Position numbers and translations under genes: made by a program. 64,000 nt of DNA from positions 95,610,941-95,674,940 of the forward strand of contig CP092870.1 in NCBI GenBank assembly GCA_030710605.1, read 5' to 3'. The DNA comes from Cordylochernes scorpioides. Its lineage: Eukaryota; Arthropoda; Arachnida; Pseudoscorpiones; Chernetidae. Under the pieces are notes generated by a model. That model had not been told where the DNA came from. It saw nothing but the letters and a program-made list of their open reading frames with translations, and searched no databases. This document shows positions 7,640 through 57,772 of this stretch, in pieces; within the stretch, counting starts at the first letter, position 1; the number at the start of each line of letters is the position of its first letter.

Positions 7640-8930
7640 TTTTCTTCATTTTTAAATTGCTCTGCCTTTGAAGAGGTCCCAGTCTTCTGTTACGTCATAC
7701 TGCCCTATCTTGGGTTCTTCCCTTTATAACTTCCCATCCAGTCCATTAGTCTGATTCTTCAACTTCTCTGTTCTTGTCCAGGTCTCCAATGACGTCTCTA
7801 TCTTGGGTTCTTCTCTTCATAGCTTCCCATCCAGTCCATCAGTCTGATTCTTCAACTTCTCTGTTCTTGTCCAGGTCTCCACTGACGTCTCTATCTTGGG
7901 TTCTTCTCTTTATAGCTTCCCATCCAGTCCATCAGTCTGATTCTTCAACTTCTCTGTTCTTGTCCAGGTCTCCAATGACGTCTCTATCTTGGGTTCTTCT
8001 CTTTATAGCTTCCCATCCAGTCCATCAGTCTGATTCTTCAACTTCTCTGTTCTTGTCCAGGTCTCCACTGACGTCTCTATCTTGGGTTCTTCTCTTTATA
8101 GCTTCCCATCCAGTCCATCAGTCTGATTCTTCAACTTCTCTGTTCTTGTCCAGGTCTCCAATGACGTCTCTATCTTGGGTTCTTCTCTTTATAGCTTCCC
8201 ATCCAGTCCATCAGTCTGATTCTTCAACTTCTCTGTTCTTGTCCAGGTCTCCAATGACGTCTCTATCTTGGGTTCTTCTCTTTATAGCTTCCCATCCAGT
8301 CCATCAGTCTGATTCTTCAACTTCTCTGTTCTTGTCCAGGTCTCCACTGACGTCATACTTCTCTATCTTGGGTTCTTCTCTTTATAACTTCCCATCCAGT
8401 CCATTAGTCCAATTCTTAAGTTTCTCTGTTCTTGTCCAGGTCTCCAGTGACCTCATACTTCTCTATCTTGAGTTCTCTTTATATATTTATAGCTTCCCAT
8501 AAGGTCCATCAGTCAAATTCTTCCTCAGTTTCTCTGTTCTTGAACATGACTTGGTCTCCAGTGATACCACACTTATCTATCTTGATTTCCTCTCTTTATT
8601 TATTCCTAACTTCCCATCCAGTCCTTCAGTCCTATTCTTCTTCAGTTTCTCTGTTCTTGAGTATCGTCCCAGTCTTAAGTGACGGCAAACTCCTCTATTT
8701 TGAGTTATTCTCTTTATTTCTTCATATATTCCAGTCCATCAGTCTGATTCTTCTTCAGTTTCTGTTCTTAAGATGGTCCCGACCTCGCATAATTCCATAC
8801 TTCTCTATCTTGAAATCTTCTCTTTATTCCTTGATAGCTTTCCAAACTCATCAGTTCAATTATTATTATTCTCATCAGTTTTCTTTCCTTTCAACACTTT
8901 CTATATAATCATATTCACTCTTTATAGATT
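7640..8930 (+). repeat. MS-A minisatellite with a homogeneous 93-bp array
   Basis: Degenerate ~100-bp units flank a homogeneous block (about 7,774-8,345) of 93-bp units. Because 93 is divisible by three, the block reads as an uninterrupted repeating frame with 31-residue periods (for example MTSLSWVLLFIASHPVHQS). The mirror array at 26,440-27,165 lacks this expansion, so the 93-bp block probably amplified after the inverted duplication. Confidence 0.85.
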
Positions 8931-11660: not shown

Positions 11661-13157
11661 ATGGATCAATTTGCTTTAATCAAAGAATCAATTTCACGGA
11701 ATCTGGAGAAGAAGCCACGAATGTCAGGCTGGGATTTATTAATTTCTTGTGTTCAAGACCATCGAGACTTGGATATCGAGGAATTGGGATTCGACTCTCT
11801 GAGAAGTTTACTTTTATCTTTTTCTGATTGTTTTCATATCAGCGGCTATGCACGATCTACCTCAGATATTTATATTAGCAACAAAGATCCAAAAGGAGAA
11901 AAAATCGTCAAAGAAGGAAATGTAAACAAAGCGGATTTAGTCATAAATGGATTAATTGACATCCTGGCGAACACAGAATTTGGAATGTCCGTCAAGATGT
12001 TGTTGGAAAAATATTCAGCCAATTATGACATTGATTTACCCCAAGATATCCTATCATTTCTAAGGTCGGTGCCACATCTTACATTACATCTATCACAATG
12101 CGATAATTGGTTCGTGCGTTTGGATAAAAACAAGAGGATTGAATATTTAAGTCAGAAGAAATCAAAACCAAAGGTGAAAGATGTATCAACTTGTCTTTCA
12201 GATGAGAAACTTAAATATGTTATGAAGAGGATCGAATTAATTTTCGAAGAAATATTTCAGAATATCAATGAAGGCATTTATGTCAGTGATCTTATGTACC
12301 TCCTTAAGAATAAGTATAAGGTTATTCCTCTACCTTGGAAATACTTAGGATTTACATCCGAAATCGCCTTTGTTAACTCAATTCTAAATCACTTCAAGTT
12401 GACGGTAAAAGAGTATTTAGGCCATGACTACCTTGTTAAACCAGACGTGAAGCTTAACAATTATCACATTCCTAAAGATGCGTGTTTAAGTTTACCATTG
12501 ACAGATGATTCTTTCCTCTATTTGAACAATGTGTATTTTAGAGCCAAGGTCGTGTATGGATATAGTCCTGATGAATTATGGATTACATTTGACATGAGAA
12601 ATAATGAAGAGAAAATATGCAGTCTTTTAAAGGAATTTTACAGTCAAGAAGCCATGGCGAATTACAGAATCCCACCTAAATATGTCAGAGAGGGACAGCT
12701 GTGCGCTGCTCTTTGCCGGGAAAATATGGAATGGTACAGAGTTAAAATACAAAATCGTTTTGATCTCGATTTGGTTGAAGTTCTTTACATTGATCTTGGA
12801 GCAAGAGATTATATCCACATCTCTGAACTGAGATTTCTACCTCAACATCTTGGAAAGATACGAGCCAATGCTCATCGAATTAAAGTGGCTGGTATTAAAC
12901 CTCACAATTCGAAGGAATGGAATCCAATTGCCTTGAATCATATCTATAATCTAATATCCAATAAAGAGGTTTTGGCTCTTCTTATGCCTCCAGAAGATGG
13001 GAAAACCTATTTGGCATACCTTTGTGCGAGAGGCGAAAACAAAGAAATACATATAAACGACGAACTTGTGAAGTTAAATTTGGCAGAATACCTTCCTGCG
13101 ACTGTTGAAGAGAATATAGATGAAGCTATCGAGAGATTTACCTCAACAATGGTTTAA
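11661..13157 (+). CDS. LOTUS- and Tudor-domain protein (TDRD5/TDRD7-like), left copy
   Basis: A 498-aa protein in one exon. I see three OST-HTH/LOTUS-type winged-helix segments (about residues 3-60, 92-155 and 186-262). A Tudor domain follows (core about 340-394, with MEWYRV and VLYIDLG-x(10)-ELRFLP), in an extended-Tudor setting ending INDELVKLNLAEYLP near residue 478. In animals such proteins act in germ granules: LOTUS segments bind Vasa-type helicases or RNA, and Tudor domains bind methylated arginines of Piwi proteins. That role is inferred from the family. Family members usually have several introns; the intronless frame suggests a retrocopy ancestor. The ATG lies in CCAGTCATGG, and the right copy starts identically. 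About 19 substitutions separate the copies and neither has a stop. Confidence 0.85.
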   Translation: MDQFALIKESISRNLEKKPRMSGWDLLISCVQDHRDLDIEELGFDSLRSLLLSFSDCFHISGYARSTSDIYISNKDPKGEKIVKEGNVNKADLVINGLIDILANTEFGMSVKMLLEKYSANYDIDLPQDILSFLRSVPHLTLHLSQCDNWFVRLDKNKRIEYLSQKKSKPKVKDVSTCLSDEKLKYVMKRIELIFEEIFQNINEGIYVSDLMYLLKNKYKVIPLPWKYLGFTSEIAFVNSILNHFKLTVKEYLGHDYLVKPDVKLNNYHIPKDACLSLPLTDDSFLYLNNVYFRAKVVYGYSPDELWITFDMRNNEEKICSLLKEFYSQEAMANYRIPPKYVREGQLCAALCRENMEWYRVKIQNRFDLDLVEVLYIDLGARDYIHISELRFLPQHLGKIRANAHRIKVAGIKPHNSKEWNPIALNHIYNLISNKEVLALLMPPEDGKTYLAYLCARGENKEIHINDELVKLNLAEYLPATVEENIDEAIERFTSTMV

Positions 13158-19976: not shown

Positions 19977-21473
19977 TTAAACCATTGTTGAGGTAAATCT
20001 CTCGATAGCTTCATCTATATTCTCTTCAACAGTCGCAGGAAGGTATTCTGCCAAATTTAACTTCACAAGTTCGTCGTTTATATGTATTTCTTTGTTTTCG
20101 CCTCTCGCACAAAGGTATGCCAAATAGGTTTTCCCATCTTCTGGAGGCATAAGAAGAGCCAAAACCTCTTTATTGGCTATTAGATTATAGATATGATTCA
20201 AGGCAATTAGATTCCATTCCTTCGAATTGTGAGGTTTAATACCAGCCACTTTAATTCGGTGAGCATTGGCTCGTATCTCTCCAAGATGTTGAGGTAGAAA
20301 TCTCAGTTCAGATATGTGGATATAATCTCTTGCTCCAAGATCAATATAAAGGACTTCAACCAAATCGATGTCAAAACGATTTTGGATCTCGACTCTGTAC
20401 CATTCCATATTTTCCCGGCAAACAGCAGCGCAAAGTTGTCCTTCTCTGACATATTTAGGTGGGATTCTGTAATTGGCCATGGCTTCATGGCTGTAAAATT
20501 CCTTTAATAGACTGCATATTTTCTCTTCGTTATTTCTCATGTCAAATGTGATCCATAATTCATCGGGACTATATCCATACACGACCTTGGCTCTAAAATA
20601 CACATTGTTCAAATAGAGGAAAGAATCATCTGTCAATGGTAAACTTAAACACGCATCTTTAGGAATGTGATAATTGTTAAGCTTCACGTCTGGTTTAACA
20701 AGGTAGTCATTACCTAAATACTCTTTTACCGTCAACTTGAAGTGATTTAGAATTGAGTTAACAAAGGCGATTTCAGATGTAAATCCTAAGTATTTCCATG
20801 GTAGGGGAATAACCTTATACTTATTCTTAAGGAGGTACATAAGATCACTGACATAAATGCCTTCATTGATATTCTGAAATATTTCTTCGAAAATTAATTC
20901 AATCCTCTTCATAACATATTTAAGATTATCATCTGAAAGACAAGTTGATACATCTTTTACTTTTGGTTTTGAATTCTTCTGACTTAAATATTCATTCCTC
21001 ATGTTTTTATCCAAACGCACGAACCAATTATCGCATTGTGATAGATGTAAGGTAAAATGTGGCACTGACCTTAGAAATGAAAGGATATCTTGGGGTAAAT
21101 CAATGTCATAATTGGCTGAATATTTTTCCAACAACATCTTGACGGACATTCCAAATTCTGTGTTTGCCAGAATGTCAATTAATCCATTTATGATCAAATC
21201 CACTTTGTTTACATTTCTTTCTTTGACAATTTTTTCTCCTTTTGGATCTTTGTTGCTAATATAAATATCTGAGGTAGATCTTGCATAACCGCTGATATGA
21301 AAACAATCAGAAAAGGATAAAAGTAAACTTCTCAGAGAGTTGAATCCCAATTCCTCGATATCCAAGTCTCGATGGTCTTGAACACAAGAGATTAATAAAT
21401 CCCAGCCTGACATTCGTGGCTTCTGCTCCAGATTCCGTGAAATTGATTCTTTGATTAAGGCAAATTGATCCAT
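19977..21473 (-). CDS. LOTUS- and Tudor-domain protein (TDRD5/TDRD7-like), right copy
   Basis: 498 aa in one exon, same length and start as the left copy, with the same LOTUS segments and Tudor core (MEWYRV, VLYIDLG). Changes from the left copy include D45N, G86R, A91V, K158M, I160N, H255N, Q329H, K362E, K399E, P422L and S433A. They are scattered, several are charge changes, and none destroys a Tudor signature residue. An open frame of this length in such AT-rich DNA after this much divergence argues for selection or recent gene conversion. Upstream and downstream flanks mirror those of the left gene. Whether each copy is transcribed cannot be judged from sequence. Confidence 0.85.
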   Translation of the reverse strand: MDQFALIKESISRNLEQKPRMSGWDLLISCVQDHRDLDIEELGFNSLRSLLLSFSDCFHISGYARSTSDIYISNKDPKGEKIVKERNVNKVDLIINGLIDILANTEFGMSVKMLLEKYSANYDIDLPQDILSFLRSVPHFTLHLSQCDNWFVRLDKNMRNEYLSQKNSKPKVKDVSTCLSDDNLKYVMKRIELIFEEIFQNINEGIYVSDLMYLLKNKYKVIPLPWKYLGFTSEIAFVNSILNHFKLTVKEYLGNDYLVKPDVKLNNYHIPKDACLSLPLTDDSFLYLNNVYFRAKVVYGYSPDELWITFDMRNNEEKICSLLKEFYSHEAMANYRIPPKYVREGQLCAAVCRENMEWYRVEIQNRFDIDLVEVLYIDLGARDYIHISELRFLPQHLGEIRANAHRIKVAGIKPHNSKEWNLIALNHIYNLIANKEVLALLMPPEDGKTYLAYLCARGENKEIHINDELVKLNLAEYLPATVEENIDEAIERFTSTMV

Positions 21474-23172: not shown

Positions 23173-23515
23173 TATTTTTAATCTATATATATAAATTTGA
23201 ATGTCTGTCTGTTTGTCTGTCTGTTTGTTTGTACTCTATAGATTCAAAAACCATACATCCAATCGCCGTGAAATTTTGGGATATTATTAGGTATATCACC
23301 GGGAAGGTTTTTGAAAAATAATTTCATGAATATCCTTTGAGTTACTTGCAGATTTGTAGATTTAACTCGCAAGCAGCGCCCCCATTGTGACGATGATAAC
23401 AAGTTTTCTTATCACTAAGTTTGTTATCTTAAATATTATTTATCAAAAGTAAGATTATCTCAGGATGACACGGCAATATGACACTGGAAAAAATGTTCAC
23501 TAGATAAAACTATGA

Positions 23516-24466
23516 TTTTCTATATGATATAAAAAGCCAACAATGAAGAGTGAATGTAATATAAAAAGCCAACAATGAAGAATGAATGTAAGATAAAAAG
23601 CCAACAATGAAGAGTGAATGTAAGATAAAAAGCCAACAATGAATAGTAAATGTAATATAAAGAGCCAACAATGAAGAATGAATGTAAGATAAAAAGCCAA
23701 CAATGAAGAGTAAATGTAATATAAAAAGCCAACAGAGTGAATGTAAGATAAAAAGCCAACAATGAAGAGTGAATGTAATATAAAAAGCCAACAATGAGAA
23801 TGAATGTAAGATAAAAAGCCAACAATGAAGAGTGAATGTAAGTTAAAAAGCCAACAATGAAGAATGAATGTAAGATAAAAAGCCAACAATGAAGAGTGAA
23901 TGTAAGATAAAAAGCCAACAATGAAGAGTAAATATAATATAAAAAGCCAACAATGAAGAGTGAATGTAAGATAAAAAGCCAACAATGAAGAGTTAATGTA
24001 ATATAAAAAGCCAACAATGAAGAGTGAATGTAAGATAAAAAGCCAACAATGAAGAGTAAATGTAATATAAAAAGCCAACAGAGTGAATGTAAGATAAAAA
24101 GCCAACAATGAAGAGTGAATGTAATATAAAAAGCCAACAATGAGAATGAATGCAAGATAAAAAGCCAACAATGAAGAGTGAATGTAAGTTAAAAAGCCAA
24201 CAATGAAGAATGAATGTAAGATAAAAAGCCAACAATGAAGAGTGAATGTAAGATAAAAAGCCAACAATGAAGAGTAAATATAATATAAAAAGCCAACAAT
24301 GAAGAGTGAATGTAAGATAAAAAGCCAAAAATGAAGAGTAAATGTAATATAAAAAGCCAACAGAGTGAATGTAAGATAAAAAGCCAACAATGAAGGGTGA
24401 ATGTAATATAAAAAGCCAACAATGAAGAATGAATGTAAGTTAAAAAGCCAACAATATGAAGAGTAA
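23516..24466 (-). repeat. ~32-bp minisatellite with higher-order structure
   Basis: About 29 copies of a unit such as AAAAAGCCAACAATGAAGAG plus TGAATGTAAGAT. Variant units (AACAGAGTGAATG, ATGAGAATGAATG) recur in the same order at ~346 bp and then ~281 bp spacing. Open frames over it on the minus strand are periodic and not genes. Confidence 0.9.
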
Positions 24467-26174: not shown

Positions 26175-26369
26175 GTGACGGCCTCGGCAACCGCGAGCTG
26201 AGAGAACACCTCACTACGCATGCGCTGGCGGCATCCGGGACTCTGGCCACGCGCGTCGTTCAACAACAAGGCTTGCTTCCAACGGCCGTTACTTCTTTTC
26301 TCTTTATATATCTCTGACTTTAAATAAATTAATTTATTTTACAAAAAAAAATAATTTCGAGGCCGTCAC
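26175..26369 (-). mobile_element. 195-bp TIR element, GC-rich (mirror copy)
   Basis: Counterpart of 9,007-9,201. One end is GTGACGGCCTCGGCAA; the other reads TTCGAGGCCGTCAC, with two bases lost from the TIR. Confidence 0.5.
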
Positions 26370-26439
26370 AAACATATATAAATACAAGAAACTCTGTTGA
26401 AGGTTATCATCAAAAAAAATATAAATAAAAAGAAGAATT

Positions 26440-27165
26440 GGATGGGAAATGTATTAAGAATGAATATGATTATATAGAAAGTGTTGAAAGGAAAGAAAAC
26501 TGATGGAAATAATAATAATTGAACTGATGAGTTTGGAAAGCTATGAAGGAATAAAGAGAAGATTTCAAGATATAGAAGTATGGAATTTTGAGAGGCCGGG
26601 ACCATCTTAAGAACAGAAACTGAAGAAGAAAAGGACTGATGGACTGGATGGGAATTTATGAATAAATAAATAGAAGAATTCAAGATAGAGAAGTTTGCCG
26701 TCACTTGAGGCTGGGACGACCTGCTCAAGAACAGAGAAACTGAAGACGAATAGGACTGAAGGACTGGATGGTAAATTATAAAGAAATAAAGAGAACTCAA
26801 GATTGAGAAGTATGACGTCACTGGAGACCAGGACAAGAACAGAGAAACTGAATAAGCAGACTGATGGACTGGATGGGAAGTTAGAAAGAAATAAAGAGAA
26901 GAAATCAAGATAGATAAGTGTGGTGTCACTGGAGACCAAGTCATGTTCAAGAACGAAGAAACTGAGGAAGAATTTGACTGATGGACTGGGTGGGAAGCTA
27001 TAAATATATAAAGAGAACTCAAGATAGAGAAGTATGACGTCAATGGAGACCTGGACAAGAACAGAGAAACTTAAGAATTGGACTGATGGACTGGATGGGA
27101 AGCTATAAAGAGAAGAACCCAATATAGAGAGGTATGACGTAACTGGAAACTGGGACCACTTCAAA
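26440..27165 (-). repeat. MS-A minisatellite (mirror copy)
   Basis: About seven degenerate ~100-bp units on the minus strand, without the 93-bp expansion of the left arm. Confidence 0.85.
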
Positions 27166-27695: not shown

Positions 27696-27762
27696 GGGAG
27701 GGCCTGGCTCATCAGTGGTGAACCCTCCCAGCGGTTTCGCCAGTTTAATCTACCATACCGCT
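27696..27762 (-). ncRNA. FB1 strand-permuted hammerhead, copy a
   Basis: On the minus strand: AGCGGUA (stem III plus H17), UGGU (stem I), CUGGC-GAA (stem II plus core), ACCGCU (stem III), GGGAGGG (stem IV), ACCA-CUGAUGA-GCCAG (stem I, core, stem II), CCCUCCC (stem IV). Stem IV differs from other copies by a compensated pair. Confidence 0.55.
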
Positions 27763-29563: not shown

Positions 29564-29630
29564 GGGAGGGCCTGGCTCATCAGTGGTGAACCCTCCCAGC
29601 GGTTTCGCCAGTTTAATCTACCATACCGCT
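29564..29630 (-). ncRNA. FB1 strand-permuted hammerhead, copy b
   Basis: Same sequence and same parts as copy a (stem IV GGGAGGG/CCCUCCC). It lies in tandem, same orientation, about 1.87 kb from copy a, so a transcript across both could also form the core in the canonical strand order. Confidence 0.55.
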
Positions 29631-32999: not shown

Positions 33000-33205
33000 A
33001 ATACGTTGCATTAGCGCACCATCTGTTATAAGAAATTATAATTATTTCTGACGCGTATAAATCTTTTTTTTAAACTGGCGAAACCGCTGGGAGGGTTCAC
33101 CTTGATGAGCCAGGCCCTCTCATTATTTTATCATTGCAGTAAGGGCAGTAGAAAATTGATTTATTATTTTTTTAAAGAATTATACGCGTCAAAAAAATGG
33201 TTCAA
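33000..33205 (+). repeat. FB1 relic with incomplete ribozyme
   Basis: Contains the outer arm (TAGCGCACCATCTGTTATAA), then CUGGC-GAAACCGCU and a damaged CUUGAUGAGCCAG. The cleavage strand AGCGGUA is missing. The right side repeats the outer arm inverted (GTAAGGGCAGTAG). Confidence 0.7.
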
Positions 33206-35999: not shown

Positions 36000-36130
36000 C
36001 AATACAGTAATAGAACTCCGAGAAGCGGTCTGGTAGATTAAATTGGAGAAACCGCTGGGAGAGTTCACCCCTGATGAGCCAAGCCCTCGAAATATATTTT
36101 TTTCATCTCAATAAGAAAAATAGAAGTTTA
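36000..36130 (+). repeat. FB1 fragment
   Basis: Only the ribozyme-bearing segment and a few flanking bases of FB1 are present. Confidence 0.65.
36024..36088 (+). ncRNA. FB1 strand-permuted hammerhead, diverged copy d
   Basis: AGCGGUC gives a GUC triplet. Stem III ACCGCU is intact, core GAA and CUGAUGA intact. Stem II is GCCAA/UUGGA: the outer pair changed from G-C to A-U on both strands, but the pair next to the core is G-A. Stem I has a mismatch (UGGU/ACCC). Confidence 0.5.
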
Positions 36131-46279: not shown

Positions 46280-46380
46280 AGAAAATATTGTGGATGAGAG
46301 GGCTTGGCTCATCATTTGTAAACCCTCTTAGCGGTTTCGCCACATTAAGTACCTAAAATTTTAGTAATCTATAGAAGCCA
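46280..46380 (-). repeat. FB1 relic, ribozyme decayed
   Basis: GAGAGGGCTTGGCTCATCAT and GCGGTTTCGCCACATTAA (plus strand) mark the ribozyme. On minus, GAAACCGCU survives, CUGAUGA is AUGAUGA, and the cleavage strand is lost. Confidence 0.6.
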
Positions 46381-49422: not shown

Positions 49423-49489
49423 GGGAGGGCCTGGCTCATCAGTGGTGAACCCTCTCAGCGGTTTCGCCAGTTTAATCTACCATACCGCT
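49423..49489 (-). ncRNA. FB1 strand-permuted hammerhead, copy f
   Basis: Stems III (AGCGGU/ACCGCU), I (UGGU/ACCA) and II (GCCAG/CUGGC) and all core bases are intact. Stem IV is GAGAGGG/CCCUCCC with one mismatch. Confidence 0.55.
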
Positions 49490-51574: not shown

Positions 51575-51782
51575 TGATGCACTAGCGCGCCATCTGTTAT
51601 CAAAATTCGAAACTATTTTAAAGGCGTAAGATTCTTTTTGATATTAAACAATTTCTACTGCCCTTACTGCAATGGAAAAATTGATGAGAGGGCTTGGCTC
51701 ATCAGTGGTGAACCCTCTCAGCGGTTTCGCCAGCTTAATTTTATTTTTCCATTGCAGTAAGGGCAGTAGAAATTGTTTTACA
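51575..51782. mobile_element. FB1 foldback, centre deleted
   Basis: Left outer arm (GATGCACTAGCGCGCCATCT) and partial ribozyme, then directly the inverted TTGCAGTAAGGGCAGTAG. The cleavage strand is missing. A TACATATATA-like target duplication is possible. Confidence 0.65.
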
Positions 51783-56010: not shown

Positions 56011-56230
56011 ATCTCTACAGACCTTACTGCAACGATATAAGTTATTGAATGAGAGAGCTTGGCTCATCAGTAGTGAACCCTCTCAGTGGTTTCGCCAAAT
56101 TAATCTCTAGATCGCTCTACTATTGTATTGGATTGGGATATACCCTGCATTTTCTATGGGAGGCAAATTAGGGATGTTTAGTGAACCTATGGATATAAGC
56201 TTATAGGTCTGTAGAGGTTATTGATAGATG
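56011..56230 (-). repeat. FB1 relic, old copy
   Basis: Diverged FB1 arm and central part (GGACATAAGC-type end at 56,200); the ribozyme portion is conserved with paired changes. Confidence 0.65.
56051..56116 (-). ncRNA. FB1 strand-permuted hammerhead, diverged copy h
   Basis: Core GAA and CUGAUGA intact; H17 is C. Stem I is UAG/CUA (G-C replaced by A-U at pair 1.2-2.2). Stem II is GCCAA/UUGGC (G-C replaced by A-U at the fifth pair). Stem IV is GAGAGGG/CUCUCUC. Stem III has decayed (AGCGAU/ACCACU). Confidence 0.5.
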
Positions 56231-56384: not shown

Positions 56385-56550
56385 CTTTAGCGCGCCATCT
56401 GTTATCAAAATTGGAAACTATTATAGACCCCTATGATTCTTTTTAAAAATAAACAATTTCTACTGCCCTTACTGCAATGGAAAATATAATGAAAGGGCCT
56501 GGCTCATCAGTGGTGAACCCTCCCAGCAGTTTCGCCAGTTTAAACTATAA
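56383..56550 (-). repeat. FB1 arm, truncated
   Basis: Outer arm GATGCTTTAGCGCGCCATCT to TTTCGCCAGTTTAAACT. The ribozyme keeps CUGGC-GAAAC and CUGAUGAGCCAG but the cleavage strand is cut off. Confidence 0.75.
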
Positions 56551-57043
56551 AATATAAACGGTGTTTTAAAAAAGGTATGTGGACACCTGGGTAAATCTAC
56601 TCCTATAGTACCTGTATTGACTGGTGCAACATTAAGGTAAGCCCTTGTAAATTATTCGAGGTTTAATCTTATTAAAATATTAATTACACATTGCCAAATT
56701 AAATATTTAATATGTGCGTGCTTATTAAATATTAACAAACGGACAGAAAAAAAAACATTAAACTTTTTTTAAGAGTTTGAAAATATTTTATTTTTGATAG
56801 CAATTTTTAAAATCGGAAATATGCAAATATAGAGGAATAAAATTTACTGTAACAAATTTCTATTGCAAGTTTTATAAACGTTAAAATTTATTTTGTAAAT
56901 AGTTCATCTCTGCCACCAATCATATATATAATGAAGCTGTAGAAGAGCGAGATACTTTTCTCGAAAGCTTTATAATTAATTTTAACAAAAAAAAGTGAAT
57001 TGTTAATTTTCTATTGTCAAAGTTTAATAAATAATACTTTAAC
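56551..57043. other. AT-rich sequence, no gene seen
   Basis: Near 56,935-56,975 GAAGCTGTAGAAGAGCGAGA and CTTTTCTCGAAAGCTTT resemble the degenerate CUGUAGA..GAAAGC motif of several foldbacks here. Confidence 0.4.
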
Positions 57044-57134
57044 AATAAAACCAATTCAAAACTATTTTAAAGGCGTAAGATTCTTTTTGATATTAAACAA
57101 TTTCTACTGCCCTTACTGCAATGGAAAAATTAAT

Positions 57135-57201
57135 GAGAGATCCTGGCTCATCAGTGGTGAACCCTCTCAGCGGTTTCGCCAGTTTAATCTACCATACCGC
57201 T
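57135..57201 (-). ncRNA. FB1 strand-permuted hammerhead, copy j
   Basis: All core bases, stem III AGCGGU/ACCGCU, stem I UGGU/ACCA and stem II GCCAG/CUGGC are intact. Stem IV is slightly weakened (GAGAGGG with AUCUCUC). Confidence 0.55.
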
Positions 57202-57395
57202 GTTATATTGCATTTTTGGAACTTCCTTTTATAGTGATACTGTTGATAGACTCTTTGAATGGGCATATTATATATTTAAAAATGTATGTAATTCTGCTGT
57301 CCTCAAAGCTTATGCCCATAGTTCTTCTAAAATACCCATTCAAAGAGTCTACAAGAGTATCACTATAAAAGGAAGTTCCAAATATGCAATATAAC

Positions 57396-57462
57396 AGCGG
57401 TATAGTAGATTAAACTGGCGAAACCGCTGAGAGGGTTCACCACTGATGAGCCAGGCCCTCTC
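57396..57462 (+). ncRNA. FB1 strand-permuted hammerhead, copy k (reference copy)
   Basis: Order along the RNA: stem III 5' strand AGCGGU (57,396-57,401); H17 A (57,402), predicted cleavage point; stem I UAGU (57,403-57,406; UGGU in most copies); linker; stem II CUGGC (57,415-57,419); GAA (57,420-57,422); stem III ACCGCU (57,423-57,428); stem IV GAGAGGG (57,429-57,435); UUC; stem I ACCA (57,439-57,442); CUGAUGA (57,443-57,449); stem II GCCAG (57,450-57,454); stem IV CCCUCUC (57,456-57,462). The known types have CUGAUGA before GAAA after the cleavage strand; here the order is reversed. Activity is untested. Confidence 0.6.
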
Positions 57463-57648
57463 ATTAATTTTTCCATTGCAGTAAGGGCAGTAGAAATTGT
57501 TTAATATCAAAAAGAATCTTACGCCTTTAAAATAGTTTTGAATTTTGATAACAGATGGCGCGCTAGTGCATCATATAATAAAACCAATATAAACGAGTAA
57601 TATAAAACTGAATATTAATCTCTCTCTTATACACGAATGCATTAAGCT

Positions 57649-57697
57649 AACCACATACGCGTTCCGGATTGTTGGTCCTCGTCATTATGGTGCAAGC
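57649..57697 (-). pseudogene. Decayed type I hammerhead (FB3-like)
   Basis: Minus: UGCACCAUA, AUGACGA (expected CUGACGA), GGACCAACAAUCC, GGAAC (expected GAAAC), GCGUA, UGUGGUUAGC. Two core changes, so inactive. Stem I still pairs ACCA/UGGU. Confidence 0.5.
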
Positions 57698-57772
57698 AGT
57701 ACCTCAATGAATAAGTAAGGATGTCATGGAGGTCTCTTGATGAATCTGAGAAGCAGTATTTCAGGTCAAATG

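What the first reader, a model, noticed from the sequence alone, without database searches (positions are those of the whole stretch)
57396..57462. A hammerhead core in a non-circularly-permuted strand order (FB1 family)
Seen: one 67-nt segment holds every invariant hammerhead nucleotide (CUGAUGA; GAA plus A15.1; U16.1 and an A or C at H17) and all three helices (III AGCGGU/ACCGCU, I UGGU/ACCA, II GCCAG/CUGGC). The order is cleavage strand, GAAA strand, CUGAUGA strand. Types I, II and III are circular permutations of the order cleavage strand, CUGAUGA strand, GAAA strand; this is the other cyclic order. Within one RNA all three helices then cross: stem III and an extra stem IV form adjacent hairpins whose loops kiss twice (stems I and II). 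Linkers of about 8 and 10 nt look long enough. I know of no described hammerhead with this topology, but I cannot search.
Basis: partly seen in the sequence, partly recalled or inferred. Interest (0 to 1): 0.92.

Follow-up and report, generated by a model that had tools for sequence, protein, structure and literature searches.

The report
Rearranged hammerhead ribozyme in animal retroelement
A very common short repeat in this arthropod-like genome carries what looks like a self-cutting RNA whose three parts are joined in a rearranged order known from environmental RNA samples, and the repeat seems to spread by being copied through RNA.

Summary
The segment holds all hammerhead core letters in the order cleavage strand, GAAA strand, CUGAUGA strand. 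One detail is wrong: the flagged copy reads UAGU, not UGGU, so its stem I has an A.C mismatch; the sister copy (57135-57201, minus) has stems I-III intact.

The topology is not new: Eckert et al. 2023 (PMC10085705) describe it as the type-SGC hammerhead, with a fourth stem and in vitro cleavage, but report no SGC example from the genome of a known organism.

What appears new is the setting. A 35-nt core pattern occurs 46,068 times in the 2.62-Gb host genome. Three subfamilies are 91% identical in the ribozyme, 57-71% in the flanks; their commonest forms differ by compensatory pairs in stems I, II and IV.

Copies form a 373-bp tandem array, dispersed head-to-tail dimers, and head-to-head pairs, often with 9-14 bp target duplications. 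Their outer 3' ends fall mostly at two sites about 32 nt apart, like the reverse-transcription start ("tail") sites published for a Penelope-like element.

Best reading: a retrozyme-like non-autonomous retroelement with an SGC hammerhead, probably moved by Penelope-type enzymes. Cleavage and circular RNA were not tested.

The parts
57396..57462 (+). Flagged SGC hammerhead copy (subfamily A); stem I has an A.C mismatch at its second pair
57396..57401 (+). Stem III, 5' strand (AGCGGU; U16.1 is the last letter)
   Evidence: pairs with 57423-57428; stem III predicted by folding
57402..57402 (+). H17 (A); predicted cleavage after this nucleotide
   Evidence: by analogy with hammerheads; not tested
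57403..57406 (+). Stem I, cleavage-strand side; UAGU here, UGGU in intact subfamily A copies
57415..57419 (+). Stem II, GAAA-strand side (CUGGC)
57420..57423 (+). GAA core plus A15.1
57423..57428 (+). Stem III, 3' strand (ACCGCU)
57429..57435 (+). Stem IV, 5' strand (GAGAGGG), directly abutting stem III with no linker
57439..57442 (+). Stem I, CUGAUGA-strand side (ACCA)
57443..57449 (+). CUGAUGA core
57450..57454 (+). Stem II, CUGAUGA-strand side (GCCAG)
57456..57462 (+). Stem IV, 3' strand (CCCUCUC)
57135..57201 (-). Sister copy in the inverted arm; stems I, II, III intact, stem IV with changes at two positions of its 3' strand
57056..57576 (.). Whole inserted element: two copies head to head; left arm with the shorter 3' end, right arm with the longer 3' end
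57044..57055 (.). Left copy of a 12-bp target-site duplication (AATAAAACCAAT)
57577..57588 (.). Right copy of the 12-bp target-site duplication
27696..27762 (-). SGC copy, subfamily A, with G-C in place of A-U in stem IV
29564..29630 (-). SGC copy, subfamily A, with G-C in place of A-U in stem IV
49423..49489 (-). SGC copy, subfamily A, with an A.C mismatch in stem IV
36024..36090 (+). SGC copy, subfamily C, decayed
56051..56116 (-). SGC copy, subfamily B, decayed
51686..51753 (-). SGC copy with a diverged or truncated S block
56491..56553 (-). SGC copy with a diverged or truncated S block
46296..46354 (-). SGC copy with a diverged or truncated S block
33061..33121 (+). SGC copy with a diverged or truncated S block

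Best explanation
This is a type-SGC (non-circularly permuted) hammerhead inside a short non-autonomous retroelement that works like a metazoan retrozyme and is probably moved by Penelope-like (PLE) enzymes. Shown by sequence: the conserved SGC core, compensatory changes in stems I, II and IV, units of about 373 bp (subfamily C) in a head-to-tail array, dispersed dimers, head-to-head insertions, target-site duplications at over half of the insertions examined, and two preferred 3' ends about 32 nt apart. Inferred: transcripts fold into two adjacent hairpins (III and IV) whose loops pair through stems I and II, building the core; it cuts after H17; multimers are trimmed to units and probably ligated into circles; a PLE reverse transcriptase starts inside the RNA at one of two sites and copies from both nicked target strands, leaving a head-to-head pair with one short and one long end.
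For: Motif against chance: the strict SGC descriptor hits four family copies in the window and 1 place in 200 shuffles. Covariation: the commonest forms of subfamilies A, B and C differ by a double change in stem II (A), stem I (B) and stem IV (C), the other differences being at H17, in the linker, or a 1-nt deletion; a rough post hoc model gives about 2e-7. Pair counts: 14 sequences, 97.7% of 303 cells paired; 63 distinct sequences, 94.9% of 1351 cells; 0 of 500 shuffles as high in both; slid structures pair 36-58% of cells. Conservation, one copy per subfamily: ribozyme 60/66, 61/67, 60/66 identical, flanks 57-71% (71/125 to 82/116). Abundance: the 35-nt core pattern occurs 46,068 times, 0 in the reversed control. 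Array and dimers. TSDs: exact repeats of at least 9 bp at 14 of 25 insertions against 1.5% of 400 mismatched flank pairs. 3' ends: 41 of 53 and 20 of 22 lie at u140-160 or u174-190; 17 of 24 head-to-head pairs have one of each. Published PLE reverse transcription starts at two internal sites that bound a 30-40 nt tail and extends both target strands (PMC11167929). GIY-YIG domains, the PLE endonuclease type, are abundant in this genome (146 listed); 11 neighbour pairs lie within 5 kb and all 11 are in minus-plus orientation, the arrangement seen for the ribozyme element.
Against: No cleavage, expression or circular RNA could be tested. Stem III shows no compensatory change. The number of pairs with a double change (4) is not above shuffles (184 of 500 as high) and one slid structure reaches 6; the tool also warns that a structure derived from the same sequences beats slid ones for that reason alone. 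The stem IV exchange also occurs inside subfamily A, so it is not private to C and one search is only a rough guide. In subfamily B stem I shrinks to 3 bp. Minimum-energy folds also pair core letters inside the loops, which competes with the kissing fold. With 0 nt between stems III and IV the path is tight; the 2023 paper calls this case not obviously compatible. 5' ends of insertions show no peak at the predicted cut (34 ends), so they give no trace of cleavage. Of 6 fetched GIY-YIG loci (about 1.5 kb each side), 5 have no SGC motif and the sixth only a decayed copy nearby; that these GIY-YIG genes belong to PLEs was not checked beyond the domain.
Confidence: 0.8

Rival explanations
1. Same letters, ordinary fold: in head-to-tail multimers the CUGAUGA strand of one unit pairs with the GAAA strand of the next unit, giving a nested type III-like (SCG) hammerhead with a very long loop; the SGC order within a unit is then incidental.
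For: A tandem array and dimers exist, so such pairing is possible. It uses the same base pairs, so covariation in stems I-III does not exclude it.
Against: Local folding puts S and G in one 6-bp hairpin and C in the loop of the adjacent hairpin in 4 of 4 sequences folded. Stem IV is conserved and covaries (A-U and G-C); it has no evident role in the nested fold but matches the fourth stem of validated SGC ribozymes. Some dispersed copies are shorter than one unit.
Confidence: 0.07
2. The conserved block is a structured RNA (or single-stranded DNA) recognition element for the reverse transcriptase or endonuclease; the hammerhead letters are inherited but catalysis is lost or unimportant.
For: A published PLE hammerhead is dispensable for insertion in vitro and cuts only with protein present (PMC11167929). 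No 5' end of 34 sampled lies at the cut site.
Against: The core letters stay fixed in three subfamilies whose flanks have drifted to 57-71% identity; 169 of 183 full-length copies, overlapping loci included, keep every core letter and 138 keep stems I-III as well.
Confidence: 0.1
3. A DNA-level foldback transposon (MITE-like) with hairpins near its ends; the hammerhead resemblance is chance.
For: Many copies are inverted pairs, often with target-site duplications.
Against: Single, tandem and head-to-head copies coexist, 5' ends are scattered and 3' ends mostly fixed, as expected from reverse transcription. Chance of the motif is about 0.005 per window (1 in 200 shuffles). Compensated changes occur in the crossing stems.
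Confidence: 0.03

Closest known systems
Type-SGC hammerhead ribozymes (HRIMA-1 motif and SGC variants), Eckert et al. 2023, PMC10085705
   Same: Strand order S-G-C, core nucleotides, stems I-III, and a fourth stem joining the far sides of stems I and II; in a few published cases also 0 nt between stem III and the fourth stem.
   Different: The paper reports no SGC example from the genome of a known organism. Here it is in a nuclear genome, in a repeat with tens of thousands of core copies. The linker between the stem I and II strands is 8 nt here, typically 3 nt in HRIMA-1. Stem I is 3-4 bp here, 5 bp in HRIMA-1.
Metazoan non-LTR retrozymes (Cervera and de la Pena 2020, PMC7229834)
   Same: Non-coding tandem units of a few hundred bp (373 here), low GC (0.35-0.37 here), dimers to large arrays, TSDs longer than 4 bp, a hammerhead in the unit.
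   Different: Theirs carry type I hammerheads and are shown to make circular RNA; here the ribozyme is type SGC and RNA was not examined. Head-to-head insertions with two preferred 3' ends are not mentioned in the parts that I read (1-3 of 6).
Penelope-like elements with hammerheads (Frangieh et al. 2024, PMC11167929)
   Same: Tandem or partial tandem copies, a ribozyme upstream of the reverse-transcription start, two start sites 30-40 nt apart, both target strands extended, AT-rich targets (target AT-richness here read by eye).
   Different: PLEs encode a reverse transcriptase with GIY-YIG and have a hammerhead with stems I and II of the canonical form; these units are too short (373 bp) to encode one and carry the SGC form.

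Membership tests
Type-SGC hammerhead | Blocks in the order S, G, C within one short RNA | tested here: met
Type-SGC hammerhead | Core nucleotides (CUGAnGA, GAA, A15.1-U16.1, H17 not G) | tested here: met
   Subfamily sequences; 169 of 183 full-length copies, overlapping loci included
Type-SGC hammerhead | Stems I, II, III pair, with covariation | tested here: met
   Stems I and II have compensatory pairs; stem III pairs (93.9% of cells) but shows none. The flagged copy itself has one mismatch in stem I
Type-SGC hammerhead | Fourth stem joining stems I and II | tested here: met
   Stem IV, 7 bp, with A-U and G-C forms
Type-SGC hammerhead | Self-cleavage after H17 | not testable with these tools
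   needs in vitro transcription
Metazoan non-LTR retrozyme | Tandem units of about 150-450 bp with low GC | tested here: met
   373 bp, GC 0.349-0.373
Metazoan non-LTR retrozyme | Type I hammerhead | tested here: not met
   SGC instead; no Rfam hammerhead at gathering score in window or L069, L071, L002, L014
Metazoan non-LTR retrozyme | Linear and circular unit-length RNA | not testable with these tools
   no RNA data
Penelope-like element | Insertions with two 3' ends 30-40 nt apart | tested here: met
   u140-160 and u174-190 (classes set); 17 of 24 head-to-head pairs are one of each, none two alike, 7 have one end outside both classes
Penelope-like element | Open reading frame with RT and GIY-YIG | tested here: not met
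   Units are about 373 bp; GIY-YIG domains lie elsewhere in the genome

The most novel reading that the evidence does not exclude
A retrozyme-class element in an arthropod has adopted the SGC permutation as its processing ribozyme and spread it to some 46,000 core copies using Penelope-type reverse transcription from both target strands: a first nuclear-genome, animal home for non-circularly permuted hammerheads, and a record in genomic insertions of paired use of the two PLE start sites (one short and one long end per insertion).
Probability: 0.72. Interest if true: 0.8.

Novelty: new variant of a known kind. Interest (0 to 1): 0.72.

Why it matters
In the one paper found that describes them, type-SGC hammerheads come from environmental sequence without a known host, so their hosts, role and evolution were open. 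A genomic family with many natural variants makes them testable: mutation tolerance, cleavage, circular RNA and in vivo role. It also shows that Rfam models, which listed no hammerhead here, can miss an abundant animal ribozyme. The regular short/long ends of head-to-head insertions bear on how Penelope-type reverse transcription starts on two target strands.

Tried and rejected
Ordinary hammerhead nearby: Rfam at gathering score found nothing in the window or in L069, L071, L002, L014; permissive scans of 57000-57700 and of L118-L123 listed no hammerhead. RF00163 over the whole genome found 0, but no control genome rang either, so it is inconclusive.

5' ends at the cleavage site: window copies starting at u4-u8 suggested that cleaved RNA is the template; a sample chosen without regard to the S block (20 loci, 34 readable 5' ends) showed no peak there, so I dropped it.

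SGC ribozyme inside a host PLE: 5 of 6 GIY-YIG loci had none, 1 of 6 a decayed family copy about 1.4 kb away; at the copy density of this window (11 in 64 kb) that is expected by chance, so it is no evidence.

Relatives elsewhere: exact patterns gave 0 in viral contigs and 0 in genome contigs. Host: at least 150 Chitin_bind_4 matches suggest an arthropod (inference); no Spidroin_MaSp, but no control rang; 6 contig ends held no telomere repeats. First scripted search timed out.

Rows dropped and biases: L001, L009, L039 (inside the window) left out; 4 of 67 distinct sequences with indels left out of A5; L041-L043, L048, L059 left out. L111 and L112 look like one duplicated locus, so 17 of 24 may be 16 of 23. 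L047 and L059 share a TSD, so 14 of 25 is 13 of 24; the repeats at L040 and L053 are simple AT runs. In one search the 5 ends at u373 and most of the 6 starts at u1 come from the length of my query, not from the copies. Counts include overlapping loci (L041-L043 with L069, L047 with L048 and L071). Query choice favours copies holding the ribozyme. The flank identities for subfamily B ran into a head-to-head junction; one search repeats them on a clean unit and replaces them.

Full report
OBSERVATION. The 67-nt segment at 57396-57462 (+) contains, in this order, a cleavage strand (AGCGGU-A-UAGU), a GAAA strand (CUGGC-GAA-ACCGCU) and a CUGAUGA strand (ACCA-CUGAUGA-GCCAG). Stem III (6 bp) and stem II (5 bp) pair fully, and an extra stem IV (GAGAGGG/CCCUCUC) encloses the CUGAUGA strand. 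The inverted sister copy (57135-57201, minus) has UGGU. Folding places stems III and IV as two adjacent hairpins in 4 of 4 sequences folded; the same minimum-energy folds also pair some core letters inside the loops. Stems I and II, which cross and so cannot appear in that prediction, would join the two loops.

CHANCE. A descriptor scan demanding the core letters, stem I >= 4, stem II >= 4 and stem III >= 5 bp found four places in the window, each a member of this repeat, none for the ordinary type III order, and one place in 200 dinucleotide-preserving shuffles. A covariance model containing only the nested stems III and IV finds 11 copies at E < 1e-7, four of them from its training set.

FAMILY. 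The window lies in an unnamed 2.62-Gb genome, probably an arthropod (at least 150 cuticle-protein matches; inference). A 35-nt pattern spanning the GAAA strand through the CUGAUGA strand occurs 23,033 times on one strand and 23,035 on the other, with 0 for the reversed control. The pattern does not include the cleavage strand, so the number of complete ribozymes among these may be lower. Of 209 profile matches in the fetched loci and window, 183 are full length (67 distinct); of the 183, overlaps included, 169 keep every core letter and 138 also keep stems I (3 bp), II and III.

COVARIATION. Three subfamilies were found by querying with different window copies. Comparing their commonest forms, A stands apart at H17 and at both sides of the outer pair of stem II (C-G against U-A); B at both sides of the second pair of stem I (A-U against G-C), at one linker position, and by a 1-nt deletion; C at both sides of the second pair of stem IV (G-C against A-U) and at one linker position. 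The stem IV exchange also occurs inside subfamily A (27696, 29564 and L015, with 49423 showing the half-change), so it happened more than once or predates the split; the linker letter of C also varies within C. Intermediates exist for stem I as G.U (3 sequences). A rough post hoc model of random substitutions in three lineages gives about 2e-7. On 14 sequences 97.7% of cells pair, on 63 distinct sequences 94.9%; no shuffle of 500 does as well in either, and slid structures pair 36-58%. Against this: the number of pairs with a double change (4) is not above shuffles (184 of 500) and one slid structure reaches 6; stem III has none; related copies inherit the same change. With one copy per subfamily the ribozyme is 60/66, 61/67 and 60/66 identical, the flanks 57-71% (71/125, 69/104, 79/126, 82/116, 86/130 and 65/112): the ribozyme is what has been kept.

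ELEMENT. At one locus the C unit of 373 bp (372-374) runs head to tail for all 10 kb of L069 (26.8 copies) and 2 kb of the overlapping L070, with 30 ribozyme motifs in all (27 and 6, 3 shared). Elsewhere C copies are dispersed: single, head-to-tail and longer than one unit (for example 588, 682, 832 and 1,100 nt), or head to head. Exact repeats of at least 9 bp flank 14 of 25 insertions, against 1.5% of 400 mismatched flank pairs; the flagged element itself (57056-57576) sits between two copies of a 12-bp AATAAAACCAAT. Counting from the first base after the predicted cut (u1), 41 of 53 3' ends in one sample and 20 of 22 in a second lie at u140-160 or u174-190, while 5' ends are scattered (recounted). 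Of 24 head-to-head insertions with both outer ends readable, 17 have one short and one long end, none two of a kind, and 7 have one end outside both classes; under equal odds 16 or 17 mixed pairs in a row have probability below 2e-5. The window element shows the same asymmetry.

MECHANISM. Published work on a Penelope-like element shows reverse transcription starting at two adjacent internal sites that bound a 30-40 nt tail, with both target strands cut and extended (PMC11167929, parts 1-2 of 4 and passages read). The two 3' ends 32 nt apart and the head-to-head pairs fit that closely. GIY-YIG endonuclease domains are abundant here (146 listed, only the best candidates scored); 11 neighbouring pairs lie within 5 kb and all 11 are in minus-plus orientation, as in the ribozyme element. 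Whether these belong to Penelope-like elements was not checked beyond the domain. Short tandem, low-GC, hammerhead-bearing repeats that make circular RNA are the metazoan retrozymes (PMC7229834, parts 1-3 of 6 read). I therefore read this as a retrozyme-like element moved by Penelope-type enzymes. Cleavage, circles and the enzyme are inferred, not shown. 5' ends show no peak at the cut site, so insertions seem to be copied from RNA that is intact or rejoined across it; this fits circles, but uncut multimers equally.

KNOWN OR NEW. The strand order is not new: Eckert et al. 2023 (PMC10085705; [quoted passage not shown] Six paper searches listed no later report of an SGC hammerhead in an organism's genome; the library holds open-licence PMC papers only and one search listed 12 of 64. 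So what appears new is the setting: a nuclear animal genome, a very large family, and the retroelement context. It meets the tested features of a type-SGC hammerhead; cleavage is untested. It works like a retrozyme but is not a member as defined, since the ribozyme is not type I. On rechecking I mended the 'private' changes and the flank identities; neither moved my odds.

Noticed in passing
G000:C14:45416000-45427051 (L069, L070 1-2052): A tandem array with 30 SGC ribozyme motifs in units of about 373 bp, 98% alike, an obvious source for transcription tests.
   Followed up: partly
window 11661-13157 (+) and 19977-21473 (-): Two nearly identical 498-aa open frames in opposite orientation about 7 kb apart; the first has a Pfam TUDOR domain (second not tested): a recent inverted duplication.
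   Followed up: no
window 23500-24390 (-), 7774-8502 (+), 26366-27164 (-): Long open frames made of repeated peptides, apparently tandem-repeat DNA rather than genes.
   Followed up: no
L118 1501-2832 (+): The GIY-YIG domain lies near the beginning of a longer open frame, as if endonuclease and reverse transcriptase were in permuted order in some Penelope-type elements (recalled, not tested).
   Followed up: no
for example G000:C1:8987892-8991117, C14:2435506-2439355, C3:60214170-60216900: 11 GIY-YIG pairs within 5 kb, all minus-plus, none of other orientation among the 146 listed.
   Followed up: partly
L001, L004, L007 and window 57271: Several subfamily A copies share one 5' end (about position 12 of the query), unlike the scattered 5' ends of subfamily C.
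   Followed up: no
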